From: Dehalococcoidia bacterium
Lineage (GTDB): Bacteria > Chloroflexota > Dehalococcoidia > GIF9 > AB-539-J10
DNA: 8,120 nucleotides
Reading direction: 5' to 3'
NCBI GenBank assembly: GCA_030612345.1
Contig: JAUWOB010000035.1
Span: 1 to 8,120, forward strand
The notes beneath the pieces are model-generated. The model was not told the origin of the DNA. It was given only the letters and a program-made list of their open reading frames with translations, and searched no databases. Shown here piece after piece: positions 4,639 to 8,120 of the stretch (position 1 is the first letter of the stretch; each line of letters begins with the position of its first letter). Position numbers and translations under genes: made by a program.

Positions 4639-5160
4639 CTAGCAGGGTAGGCACTTGTCCAGAAGCTCCTTCTCCTTTTCCTTCATCCTGCGTTCCTCCT
4701 CTGGCTCTTCATGGTCGTATCCCAGAAGATGAAGCATGCCGTGGATGATCAACAACGCCAGCTCTCTTTCGAATGGTTGTCCCCGTTCTCTCGCTTGTTC
4801 AGCTGCCTGGGGGCAGGAGATGATCACCTCTCCCAGGTGGGTTATGCCGTCGGGAGGCAGAACGAATGAAGAATCGGCTTCTTGCCCGGCGAGCATGTAA
4901 AAGGCCAGTACATCCGTAGGCTCGTCCAATCCCCTGTAGTCTCGGTTAAGCCTCTGCACAGTCTCCGAATCCGTGAAGACCAGGCTCACCTCATAGGGCT
5001 TAGCCACCCCTTCAGCCTTGAGGACTTGCAGGGCCATCTCTTTAGCCCGCTTCTCATCCACTACCTCCCGGAATTCCTCGTCAACGACAATGCCGATTTC
5101 CTCTGACGATGGTTGTATCAACTCTCTCAATACTGCCTCATTCTTCGTGACTCGCACCAT
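4639..5160 (-). CDS. ybeY: Endoribonuclease YbeY (rRNA maturation factor)
   Basis: YbeY is a zinc-dependent single-strand endoribonuclease involved in 16S rRNA 3'-end maturation and ribosome quality control. The metal site HGMLHLLGYDH has its three histidines at 140, 144 and 150. Also present are the family blocks LNRDYRGLDEPTDVLAF (71-87) and HLGEVIIS (108-115). The tail after 150 is highly charged. The protein is 173 residues from ATG 5160, with about 18 more N-terminal residues than the core needs. That ATG lies directly after an in-frame TGA and has no visible Shine-Dalgarno. TTG at 5130 has GAGG five bases upstream and would give a 163-residue product closer to family length, so the start is uncertain. 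It lies 71 bp downstream of hepT on the same strand. No strong promoter of its own is visible, so it may depend on transcription through the toxin-antitoxin genes. Confidence 0.94.
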   Translation of the reverse strand: MVRVTKNEAVLRELIQPSSEEIGIVVDEEFREVVDEKRAKEMALQVLKAEGVAKPYEVSLVFTDSETVQRLNRDYRGLDEPTDVLAFYMLAGQEADSSFVLPPDGITHLGEVIISCPQAAEQARERGQPFERELALLIIHGMLHLLGYDHEEPEEERRMKEKEKELLDKCLPC

Positions 5161-5231
5161 TCATAATAAGCCAGCCAATCCACGGATCTCGTCTGCCTGA
5201 ATGCTGTTCTGCCGTTCAAACCAGATTACGA

Positions 5232-5507
5232 TCACCCCGCTTTTTCCATATCTTCCAATACCTTCTCTACCAGAGCTTTGACCGGCGATAGTTCTTCTTT
5301 GGCAACCACCCAAACAATCTCTAAATCTACCCCATGATACTCATGAATAAGCTTATCTCTCATTCCTGCCATTCTTTTCCACGGAATGTCCGGATACCTT
5401 TTCCTTACGTCTTCCGGAATTTTCTTTGCTGCCTCACCTATGACCTCAAGACTTCTTATTACTGCATTTATCGTCTTTCTATGACCCAAAAATTCTGTAA
5501 AGTCCAT
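5232..5507 (-). CDS. hepT: HepT-like HEPN RNase toxin, N-terminally truncated (DUF86)
   Basis: HepT toxins are HEPN-fold ribonucleases neutralised by MntA nucleotidyltransferase antitoxins, which AMPylate a tyrosine beside the active site. This 91-residue core keeps the family block TINAVIRSLEVIGEAAKKI, then IPWKRMAGM and the catalytic RX4HXY motif RDKLIHEY (R50, H55, Y57 here), followed by GVDLEIVW. Members usually have about 110-120 residues. The missing first helix is encoded just upstream in the same frame but is cut off by a TGA at 5513-5511. This ORF starts at the ATG at 5507, six bases after that stop. It could be made by re-initiation, by readthrough as a 116-residue protein, or not at all. 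It is more A/T-rich than the flanking housekeeping genes, as is mntA, which suggests transfer. Confidence 0.8.
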   Translation of the reverse strand: MDFTEFLGHRKTINAVIRSLEVIGEAAKKIPEDVRKRYPDIPWKRMAGMRDKLIHEYHGVDLEIVWVVAKEELSPVKALVEKVLEDMEKAG

Positions 5508-5510
5508 ACC

Positions 5511-5582
5511 TCATGTAAAATCGCCAAGCTCCTCTATGGCATCAGAAACATGGGAAATATAGTCTAAGAAATCCTTCTTCAT
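5511..5582 (-). pseudogene. hepT: N-terminal fragment of hepT ending at a premature TGA
   Basis: The natural hepT start is the ATG at 5582, which overlaps the mntA stop in an ATGA arrangement. From it 23 codons are read (MKKDFLDYI at the start, GDFT at the end), matching the first helix of HepT proteins. Codon 24 is TGA, and the same frame continues with GGT-ATG into the remaining HepT core. There is no length change, so the cause is a base substitution (for example CGA, GGA or AGA to TGA), not a frameshift. Confidence 0.82.
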
Positions 5583-5872
5583 ACCATGATTACTTCCTTT
5601 AGAATATGACTGCCTGTTCTTGGTTTCAATGCTTTCTTTGACACAAGATCGACTCTTGCGCCCAGTAGCCCTTCAAGATATTCCTCAAGTTCCAAAAATT
5701 TGAAAAAACCTACAGGTCCCCCAAACTCAACCAGTATGTCAACATCACTTGCGTCCTTTTGTTCTCCCCTGACATAAGAGCCCAACATGCCAATCTCTCT
5801 TACCTTGTATTTTTCCTTCAACTCCTCTCTATGCTTTTCCAGCGTCTCTCTTGTCTCTTGAATCGATTTCAT
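5579..5872 (-). CDS. mntA: MntA-type antitoxin, minimal nucleotidyltransferase
   Basis: MntA is a minimal nucleotidyltransferase that neutralises HepT by transferring AMP groups to it. The 97 residues form one MNT domain. The active-site motif is GS (31-32) followed by D43-x-D45 in GSYVRGEQKDASDVDIL, with a third likely acidic residue D75 in VDLV. GFFKFLELEEYL and a KKALKPR segment are typical of the HepT-linked subfamily. All key residues are present and the length is normal, so it looks functional. AGAGGA lies about six bases upstream of the ATG, and a good promoter lies at 5914-5942. Its stop overlaps the natural start of hepT by four bases, showing that the two evolved as a coupled pair. 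Its codons are more A/T-rich than those of mutS. Confidence 0.92.
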   Translation of the reverse strand: MKSIQETRETLEKHREELKEKYKVREIGMLGSYVRGEQKDASDVDILVEFGGPVGFFKFLELEEYLEGLLGARVDLVSKKALKPRTGSHILKEVIMV

Positions 5873-5913
5873 ATCCTGTCCTCTATCTTACACGCTACTA
5901 CAATAGTGATGGT

Positions 5914-5942
5914 ATCATAACAGGCAATTCAACTCGTTTCAA
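5914..5942 (-). promoter_or_regulatory. Promoter of mntA-hepT
   Basis: On the minus strand TTGAAA (5942-5937), a 17-bp spacer and TATGAT (5919-5914) match consensus at 5/6 and 5/6, and TGT before the -10 makes it extended. Start is predicted near 5907, giving a leader of about 35 nt. Two short palindromes, TGAT-GGT-ATCA (5907-5917) and ACTA-CAA-TAGT (5897-5907), overlap the -10 box and start point and could serve autoregulation; they are short enough to be chance. Confidence 0.6.
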
Positions 5943-5946
5943 CGAA

Positions 5947-5957
5947 TATAGTAGAAT
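5947..5957 (+). promoter_or_regulatory. Possible -10 region for mutS
   Basis: Overlapping -10-like hexamers TATAGT (5947-5952) and TAGAAT (5952-5957) lie just before the mutS ATG. Upstream -35 matches are weak (TTCAAC at 5928-5933 with an 18-bp spacer). If used, transcription would start within a few bases of the ATG, fitting the absence of a Shine-Dalgarno. Confidence 0.25.
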
Positions 5958-5964
5958 AGCGCTG

Positions 5965-8120
5965 ATGGCTGTAACGCCCCTCAGGAAGCAGTATCTCAGG
6001 GTTAAACAGAGGCACCCCGAAGCTATAGTTTTCTTCCGCCTAGGCGACTTCTATGAGACCTTTGACGATGATGCAAGAGTTGCTTCGCGAGAGCTTGATA
6101 TTGTACTAACCTCGCGGGAGATGGGCAAGGGACAGAGGGTGCCCATGGCGGGGATACCTCATCACGCGCTGGACAGCTACCTGGCCAAGCTCATCAGCCG
6201 CGGTCACAAGGTAGCTATTTGCGAGCAACTCAGCCTGCCCGGCAAGGGATTGGTGGAACGTGACGTGACTCGCGTGGTGACGCCGGGGACGGTGGTCGAA
6301 CCTAGTCTGCTCGAGAGCAAGAGCAACAACTATCTGGCCAGCCTGGTTGTCGAAGGCGGGCAAGCGGGAATTGCCTATGTTGATATCAGCGCCGGCGAGT
6401 TTGCCACCACTCAGCTTCCTGCCGAAAGAATGATGCCTGAACTGGAGAGACTTCAACCCAGCGAAGTCCTTATTTCCGCGGATGCTAGCGATGATGCCCG
6501 CTTGCAGTTTACTCTGACCCGGCTCGACGACTACTGGTTTGATCTCGAGATAGCCCGGGAGACATTGCTGGAGCATTTTGGCGTGTCTAACCTTGAGGGC
6601 TATGGCTGTGCCCACCTGTCCCTGGCCATAAGGGCGACTGGTGCATTGATACATTATGTCAATGAGACGCACAAGGAAACCCGGCCTCAACTGGGCAGGC
6701 TTGCCACTTACTCCACCGATTCCTTCATGACGCTCGATGGCCAGACCATCCGCAATCTGGAGCTTTTCCACGGCGGCAGGTCGGGCGAAACGGCCCGCTC
6801 ACTCCTTTCCGTCATTGACCTGACTGAGACGGCAATGGGCGGCAGGCTGCTCAGGAATTGGCTGGCACATCCTCTTCTGGATCTGGAGGTTCTGAATCGG
6901 CGGCAGGGGGCAATTGCCTGGTTTCACCGGGATGGTCCGGCCCGTCGGAAGGTCCTCACGCTGCTGTCGAGCGTTGCTGACCTGGAAAGGCTGGTGAATA
7001 GAGTCGGGGTTGGCAGAGTCATGCCCAGGGAACTGATAACGTTGAGGTTTAGCTTGGAGAAAGCGCCGGGCCTGAAGGCGGCGATGGCAAATGCGGATGT
7101 GGTGGGGTGGCTAATGGACGAACTCAGGCCTTGCCCTGATATCGTCGGCTTAATCGAGAGGGCTATAGCCGATGAACCGGGAGGTTTGGAGCAGGGCGGC
7201 GTGATAAAGGAAGGGTTTTCTCCTGAGCTAGATGAGATCCGCCGCAAGTCAAGCCAGGCTAAGCAATACCTGGCCGGCCTTGAGCAGAGGGAAAAAGAGC
7301 GGACGGGGATCAAATCTTTGAAGGTGGGCTACAACCGCGTATTCGGTTATTACATTGAGGTATCTCGGGCCAATCTCGGCCTGGTTCCCCCGGATTACAT
7401 ACGTAAGCAGACCCTGACGGAGGCGGAGAGGTTCTTCACCCCCGAACTTAAGGAGTACGAATCACTGATCCTAAGCGCGCGGGACAAGATTGCCGACCTG
7501 GAGACTGGCATTTTCCGGCAGCTTTGTCAGCAGATAAACGCTGCGGGTGAGCGGATTCTGACCACTGCCAGGGTCATAGCTCAGATCGATGCCCTGGCCG
7601 GCCTTGCCGAGGCGGCAGCGCGTCACGGCTATGTCCGGCCGAGCCTGAGCGACGAGGATATCGTAGATATCAAGGGCGGGCGTCACCCTGTCGTGGAACA
7701 GAGCATTGGCAGCGACAAATTCGTTCCTAACGATGCTTATCTCTGCAACAAGGATAATCAGCTCATGATACTCACAGGGCCTAACATGTCAGGAAAGTCC
7801 ACGTATCTCAGGCAGGTAGCCCTCATCATACTTCTGGCACAGATTGGGAGCTTTGTCCCTGCTGATTCTGCCGGTGTCGGCATTGTCGACCGCATTTTCA
7901 CCCGCATCGGCGCTCAGGAGGACCTGGCCGCCGGGCAATCCACCTTTATGGTGGAGATGACTGAGGCAGCGAATATCCTGAATAATGCTACGCCTCGCTC
8001 CTTTATCATTCTGGACGAGATTGGGCGAGGTACCTCCACCTATGACGGGCTTTCCATTGCCTGGGCGGTGGTCGAGTACATCCACAACCACCCCGGGCTT
8101 GGGGCGAAAACCCTGTTTGC
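5965..8120 (+). CDS. mutS: DNA mismatch repair protein MutS, partial, 3' end outside window
   Basis: MutS finds mismatches and small loops and, after ATP binding, recruits MutL. The 718 codons read without interruption to the right edge. They cover the mismatch-recognition domain (GDFYETF with the wedge Phe29 and Glu31 of the F-x-E motif; PMAGIPHHALDSYL), the connector, the core lever domain (SFMTLDGQTIRNLELF), the clamp (GYNRVFGYYIEVSRAN) and the ATPase. The last has Walker A GPNMSGKST at 605-613, the signature region DLAAGQSTFMVEM, and Walker B ILDEIGRGTSTYDG with D684 and E685. Only the end of the ATPase domain and the C-terminal tail (perhaps 100-150 residues) are missing. The recognition motif marks it as MutS1 rather than MutS2. 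ATG 5965 gives the usual spacing to the first conserved block; no Shine-Dalgarno is visible. It is divergent from mntA with a 92-bp gap. Confidence 0.97.
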   Translation, partial: MAVTPLRKQYLRVKQRHPEAIVFFRLGDFYETFDDDARVASRELDIVLTSREMGKGQRVPMAGIPHHALDSYLAKLISRGHKVAICEQLSLPGKGLVERDVTRVVTPGTVVEPSLLESKSNNYLASLVVEGGQAGIAYVDISAGEFATTQLPAERMMPELERLQPSEVLISADASDDARLQFTLTRLDDYWFDLEIARETLLEHFGVSNLEGYGCAHLSLAIRATGALIHYVNETHKETRPQLGRLATYSTDSFMTLDGQTIRNLELFHGGRSGETARSLLSVIDLTETAMGGRLLRNWLAHPLLDLEVLNRRQGAIAWFHRDGPARRKVLTLLSSVADLERLVNRVGVGRVMPRELITLRFSLEKAPGLKAAMANADVVGWLMDELRPCPDIVGLIERAIADEPGGLEQGGVIKEGFSPELDEIRRKSSQAKQYLAGLEQREKERTGIKSLKVGYNRVFGYYIEVSRANLGLVPPDYIRKQTLTEAERFFTPELKEYESLILSARDKIADLETGIFRQLCQQINAAGERILTTARVIAQIDALAGLAEAAARHGYVRPSLSDEDIVDIKGGRHPVVEQSIGSDKFVPNDAYLCNKDNQLMILTGPNMSGKSTYLRQVALIILLAQIGSFVPADSAGVGIVDRIFTRIGAQEDLAAGQSTFMVEMTEAANILNNATPRSFIILDEIGRGTSTYDGLSIAWAVVEYIHNHPGLGAKTLF

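What the first reader, a model, noticed from the sequence alone, without database searches (positions are those of the whole stretch)
5508..5582. In-frame TGA splits the HepT toxin while the MntA antitoxin is intact
The mntA stop and the natural hepT start overlap as ATGA, and the sequence from that start encodes a good HepT first helix. Codon 24 is TGA, then GGT-ATG resumes HepT in the same frame up to a core with the RX4HXY motif. Options are decay of the toxin with the antitoxin kept, a truncated toxin made by re-initiation six bases after the stop, or programmed readthrough. Standard annotation would show only a 91-residue ORF and miss the defect.
Basis: partly seen in the sequence, partly recalled or inferred. 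Interest (0 to 1): 0.7.

Follow-up and report, generated by a model that had tools for sequence, protein, structure and literature searches.

The report
Severed HepT toxin beside intact antitoxin
In this bacterial genome an in-frame stop codon cuts the gene of the HepT toxin at codon 24, at the predicted end of its first helix, while the antitoxin gene MntA beside it stays open, so the toxin has likely been disarmed with its antidote kept, a half-decayed state also seen in a few per cent of related loci.

Summary
In detail: on the minus strand mntA (5872-5579) is open and overlaps the hepT start as ATGA; hepT codon 24 (5513-5511) is TGA; an ATG (codon 26, 5507) resumes the frame for 91 residues of HepT core with RX4HXY. 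In 73 of 80 fetched relatives the open frame reaches a start codon 20-34 codons further upstream, so the family does not naturally begin at ATG 5507. The break falls at the predicted end of helix 1 of a four-helix fold. Best reading: a HepT/MntA pair whose toxin was severed and likely disarmed, antitoxin kept. This is ordinary: of 116 class-level HepT matches, HepT is broken over two frames or ORFs in 6, the antitoxin in none. Readthrough has no support. A functional reading stays alive: a 95%-identical HepT on another contig is also listed as 91 residues from the same Met, with a full-length MntA on a contig of that length; the cores differ by 5 of 91, MntA by 10 of 97. That DNA could not be read, and some such database entries are start mis-calls. 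New context: the site between mutS and ybeY is empty in 10 of 15 genus loci, and a promoter-like element that there precedes ybeY now precedes mntA.

The parts
5579..5872 (-). mntA, antitoxin (minimal nucleotidyltransferase), 97 aa, open, GSX10DXD present
   Evidence: PF01909 58.6 bits, PF18765 36.8 bits; NCBIfam MntA model 39.4 bits, cut-off 60 (open relatives score 45.1 and 46.8); motif read
5514..5582 (-). hepT 5' piece: ATG plus 22 codons, predicted helix 1
   Evidence: 70% identity (16 of 23) to the G010 copy; helix 1 = residues 2-23 in the model of relative P0003
5511..5513 (-). in-frame TGA, hepT codon 24
5232..5507 (-). hepT core ORF from ATG codon 26, 91 aa, RX4HXY present
   Evidence: PF01934 95.9 bits
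5579..5582 (-). ATGA overlap of mntA stop and hepT start
5914..5942 (-). promoter-like -35/-10 (TTGAAA-17-TATGAT, TG before it) in front of mntA; a like sequence precedes ybeY in 8 of 10 relatives without the pair
4639..5160 (-). ybeY, downstream in the same direction
   Evidence: PF02130 140 bits
5965..8118 (+). mutS (divergent neighbour; window ends inside it), no in-frame stop

Best explanation
This is a HepT/MntA toxin-antitoxin pair in which an in-frame TGA cuts the toxin gene at codon 24, at the predicted end of helix 1, while the antitoxin gene is open, so the toxin is likely disarmed. Shown: the stop, the open antitoxin, the intact motifs, the upstream start in 73 of 80 relatives, and the position between mutS and ybeY where 10 of 15 genus loci have no such pair. 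Inferred: translation of hepT stops after 23 residues; the four-helix HEPN fold then lacks helix 1 and would not form the active dimer; a 91-residue core may still be made at low level by re-initiation at ATG 5507 and may be harmless or only bind MntA; losing the toxin before the antitoxin is the safe order of decay; mntA likely stays transcribed because it lies behind what looks like the ybeY promoter.
For: TGA in frame with MntA open. Start codon 20-34 codons upstream in an open frame in 73 of 80 relatives. Model of relative P0003: helix 1 = residues 2-23, mean pLDDT 89.9; its best PDB matches are Shewanella HepT chains, probability 1.00, E 0.003. The 91-residue core model has pTM 0.69 and finds no HepT in the PDB (18 matches, best E 2.8). 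HEPN is a four-helix fold with helix 1 in its first hairpin (PMC3710099, passages). Census: HepT spread over two ORFs in 6 of 116; MNT broken in 0 of 116 (one MNT locus, L182, has a second weak overlapping hit beside a full one). Of the 5 core differences between window and c10868, 3 fall in columns at least 90% conserved, against 92 of 790 in 28 pairs of 8 open relatives (P 0.013), a hint of relaxed constraint. The syntenic open copy in G010 differs at a Pro and a Trp that are invariant in the alignment, so the toxin may be failing in that lineage too.
Against: The core keeps RX4HXY and has one lesion only. A 95%-identical core on another contig is also listed as 91 aa (P0002), and a full-length MntA (P0123) lies on a contig of the same length; if that stop is shared, a dead core should have drifted far more than 5 of 91 (expected 18-46 under the stated assumptions). 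The relaxed-constraint hint is weak: leaving out Ser74, which open relative P0003 shares, gives P 0.07. The missing PDB match of the core model had no control with the same piece cut from the full-length model.
Confidence: 0.62

Rival explanations
1. The split is old and the 91-residue core, alone or together with the separately made helix-1 peptide, is still functional and under selection (two-chain HepT, weakened toxin, or a harmless partner of MntA). The core is made by re-initiation at ATG 5507.
For: Break exactly at the predicted helix 1/loop boundary; ATG 3 bases after the stop; P0002 and P0007 are listed from the same Met, and full-length MntA proteins lie on contigs of the same lengths, 10868 and 3336; window/c10868 cores differ 5 of 91, MntA 10 of 97; neutral drift since a shared stop is rejected under the assumptions; in HEPN the termini are adjacent and helix 1 is circularly permuted in the KEN relative (PMC3710099, passages).
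Against: The DNA of those contigs could not be read. Listed starts at this Met can be mis-calls: P0264 is listed as 89 aa on a contig of the length of that of L021, whose frame is open from an upstream GTG. Foldseek finds no HepT fold for the core model. Three of five core differences hit conserved columns.
Confidence: 0.2
2. The TGA is an assembly or sequencing error, or a minor strain variant; the toxin is intact in most cells.
For: The genome is a 148-contig, 69%-complete assembly; reads were not available.
Against: P0002, 95% identical and from other sources, is also listed as 91 aa; nothing else in the frame is damaged.
Confidence: 0.1
3. Programmed readthrough or recoding of TGA makes full-length HepT.
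For: The frame continues after TGA.
Against: No Rfam match in the window; no SelA in the own genome, itself incomplete; RNA fold around the stop no stronger than shuffles (z 1.1); TGA ends mntA and hepT itself and does not occur in frame in mutS or ybeY.
Confidence: 0.04

Closest known systems
HepT/MntA type VII toxin-antitoxin, Class I HEPN/MNT (Shewanella oneidensis SO_3166/SO_3165; PMC7641770 and PMC4621449, passages seen)
   Same: PF01934 toxin core with RX4HXY, nucleotidyltransferase antitoxin with GSX10DXD, antitoxin first, overlapping genes; the model of relative P0003 matches 5yep/7bxo
   Different: toxin gene carries an in-frame stop after helix 1; window proteins score below the NCBIfam equivalog cut-offs, but so do open relatives, so this sets apart the subfamily, not the break
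Broken toxin genes next to whole antitoxin genes, found here in relatives (L176, L178, L191, L231, L235, L262)
   Same: toxin over two ORFs, antitoxin in one
   Different: here a single stop at the predicted helix 1/loop boundary, core open to its end, ATG 3 bases after the stop
G010 contig C117 (same length and coordinates as JACUUR010000010.1, Dehalococcoidia bacterium Kmv36; L013, L144)
   Same: same order mutS, mntA, hepT, ybeY
   Different: hepT frame open, but with changes at two invariant positions

Membership tests
HepT/MntA (type VII, Class I HEPN/MNT) | PF01934 HEPN toxin domain | tested here: met
   core 95.9 bits, cut-off 23.5
HepT/MntA (type VII, Class I HEPN/MNT) | RX4HXY in the toxin | tested here: met
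   core R50, H55, Y57, invariant columns; motif from PMC7641770 passages
HepT/MntA (type VII, Class I HEPN/MNT) | GSX10DXD in the antitoxin | tested here: met
   read from the MntA translation (alignment)
HepT/MntA (type VII, Class I HEPN/MNT) | antitoxin upstream, stop/start overlap | tested here: met
   ATGA 5582-5579; overlap described for SO_3165/SO_3166 in PMC4621449 passages
HepT/MntA (type VII, Class I HEPN/MNT) | one open frame for the whole four-helix toxin | tested here: not met
   TGA at codon 24; helix 1 severed (model of a relative)
HepT/MntA (type VII, Class I HEPN/MNT) | NCBIfam equivalog cut-offs NF047751 / NF047752 | tested here: not met
   41.6 and 39.4 bits against 60 each; control: open relatives P0003, P0008, P0004 score 49.7, 48.9, 42.3 and P0124, P0126 45.1, 46.8, also below
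HepT/MntA (type VII, Class I HEPN/MNT) | RNase toxicity and neutralisation by adenylylation | not testable with these tools
   needs bench work
Selenocysteine / programmed TGA readthrough | recoding element and machinery | tested here: not met
   no Rfam match, no SelA, no strong fold; the genome is incomplete

The most novel reading that the evidence does not exclude
A natural two-chain toxin: one operon makes HepT as a 23-residue helix-1 peptide and a 91-residue re-initiated core that reassemble, the stop setting a low toxin dose, and this split form is kept by selection in at least two lineages.
Probability: 0.13. Interest if true: 0.65.

Novelty: new member of a known kind. Interest (0 to 1): 0.36.

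Why it matters
If the toxin is dead, the locus is a snapshot of how a toxin-antitoxin pair is taken apart: toxin first, antitoxin later. The census (6 of 116 against 0 of 116) puts a number on that order for HepT-like pairs in this class, and it warns that annotation can list such remnants as ordinary short DUF86 genes. If the core is instead kept by selection, it would be a split HEPN toxin or a toxin turned into a harmless partner, which one look at the sister contig's DNA would largely decide.

Tried and rejected
Natural start at ATG 5507: rejected for most relatives. Readthrough or recoding: no support. Phage origin: 12 pattern matches but no relative in viral contigs; the plasmid search gave one partial match, 18% of the query. 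PADLOC: MntA matches PDC-S09 models, the HepT core none. Lesion hot spot at the helix 1/loop junction: considered, because L263 (G839) has a frameshift at the same junction and L264 a lesion at the end of helix 1, but in the census the 6 breaks are spread over the gene, and the 12 loci were picked for short open frames, in-frame stops or both, so no hot spot is claimed. Listed proteins starting at the equivalent of Met 26 (52 of the 120 best of 400 short forms) were not counted as splits, because L021 points to mis-called starts. Codon-based rates against G010: mntA 0.155, hepT core 0.099, ybeY 0.225; not decisive, since most of that time likely precedes the stop; the mutS figure of that call used a wrong frame and is discarded. 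Literature listings showed no title on this locus or on split HepT; the library holds open-licence papers only, and only passages of PMC7641770, PMC3710099, PMC4621449 and PMC7180214 were seen.

Full report
What is there. On the minus strand mntA (5872-5579, 97 aa) overlaps the natural hepT start as ATGA. HepT reads 23 codons, TGA at 5513-5511, GGT, ATG at 5507, and then 91 open residues to 5232. The core is PF01934 at 95.9 bits; the genome search, which reads through stops, scores the frame at 107.4 bits from profile position 2. RX4HXY and GSX10DXD, the motifs that mark this pair in PMC7641770 (passages), are intact. The genome is a 960-kb, 148-contig, 69%-complete assembly with this as its only PF01934 match.

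Is Met 26 the natural start? No, for most relatives. Of 80 loci fetched with the core (131 encoded a relative, the best 80 were kept), 73 have an ATG (64) or GTG (9) 20-34 codons upstream in an open frame (in L065 this GTG looks like chance, from the frames). Of the other 7, L085 and L087 have a start nearer, because their alignment begins earlier in the protein, and L035, L036, L041, L081 and L088 look broken in the first third. L014 and L049 carry lesions further on; L049 also has other indels that look like sequencing errors.

Where does it cut? In the model of the open relative P0003 (pLDDT 89.9) helix 1 is residues 2-23 and the loop 24-27, so codon 24 is the boundary. That model's best PDB matches are Shewanella HepT chains, 5yep and 7bxo, probability 1.00, TM 0.66-0.67, E 0.003-0.004. 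The 91-residue core model is less confident (pLDDT 84.1, pTM 0.69) and finds no HepT. [quoted passage not shown] Loss of helix 1 is therefore expected to disarm it; this is inference.

How unusual is it? From 393 genomes of the class I took 116 of the 119 PF01934 rows with E at most 2.4e-22 (left out: the window itself, G360:C15 at a contig edge, G137:C316, which is not a typical HepT); weaker rows were not used, though one of them, G234:C294, also shows an in-frame stop beside an open MNT frame. HepT is spread over two ORFs in 6 of 116 (L176, L178, L191, L231, L235, L262), each with the MNT gene in one ORF. MNT is broken in 0 of 116: one locus, L182, has a weak second hit that overlaps a full one. 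In one of the six, L231, the second HepT piece scores only 3.1 bits. Six of six on the toxin side has P 0.016, or 0.024 weighted by length. MNT matches often cover the profile only in part, and L226 has none, so MNT damage may be under-counted. In-frame stops also occur in rows of the phylum search and of an archaeal phylum; these capped lists were not counted. Broken HepT is thus ordinary.

Is the break private? P0002 (95% identity, contig 10868) is listed as 91 aa from the same Met, and P0123 (MntA, 90%, contig 10868) is full length; P0007 and P0125 (75%, 76%, contig 3336) form the same pattern; P0003 and P0124 (88%, 88%, contig 947) are full length. P0122, a 98%-identical MntA, lies on an 8108-base contig; its HepT was not seen apart. 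Caveat: 52 of the 120 best short HepT entries start at the equivalent of Met 26, and P0264 (contig length of L021) looks like a start mis-call, as L021 is open from GTG.

Selection. Window and c10868 differ by 5 of 91 in the core and 10 of 97 in MntA; 881 close pairs that leave out the three 91-residue entries have a median core/MntA ratio of 1.04 (5-95%: 0.74-1.46), this pair 0.53, not significantly lower (P 0.16). If the stop is shared, a neutral core should show about 18-46 differences for MntA dN/dS of 0.5-0.155. Against selection, 3 of the 5 differences hit columns at least 90% conserved, versus 92 of 790 in 28 pairs of open relatives (P 0.013; 0.07 without Ser74, which P0003 shares). In total count of such changes the window core (2) is within the range of 114 open relatives (0-5). 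A recent private stop and an old, still useful core both remain possible; I put the first higher because broken HepT is common and the second needs a new function.

Setting. Of 15 genus loci with ybeY, 10 have mutS and ybeY as neighbours with no mntA or hepT hit between; own and G010 carry the pair; L097, L101, L102 are uninformative. In 8 of the 10 empty sites (L093-L096, L098, L103-L105; not L099, L100) a sequence like the window's TTGAAACG...TATGAT stands right before ybeY, and in the window it stands before mntA. The pair thus appears inserted between a promoter-like element and ybeY, which could keep mntA transcribed; untested.

Verdict. A severed, likely disarmed HepT beside an open MntA, a member of a recurring class of half-decayed pairs. 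The open point is the DNA of the sister contig.

Noticed in passing
window 5161-5965; L091-L105, L144: mntA-hepT sits in a site that is empty in 10 of 15 genus loci; a promoter-like sequence that in 8 of these 10 precedes ybeY now precedes mntA.
   Followed up: yes
L144 3180-3449 (G010, same locus): The open HepT of the syntenic relative has changes at an invariant Pro and an invariant Trp of the core, so it may be failing by missense.
   Followed up: partly
L263 (G839:C105): A HepT with a frameshift at the same helix 1/loop junction, an ATG at the Met 26 position and an open MntA frame.
   Followed up: partly
L041, around 2471-2545: A HepT that seems to have lost most of helix 1 and the loop by deletion, MntA frame open.
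   Followed up: no
L021 / P0264: A database entry of 89 aa on a contig of the same length as that of L021, whose frame is open from an upstream GTG: short HepT entries include likely start mis-calls.
   Followed up: yes
G000, place not listed: The own genome has two PF18765 matches; their places were not shown, so at least one may lie outside this window.
   Followed up: no
window 5579-5872, mntA: MntA of the window has Leu and Thr at two columns at least 95% conserved in relatives, one of them just before the GS of its motif.
   Followed up: partly
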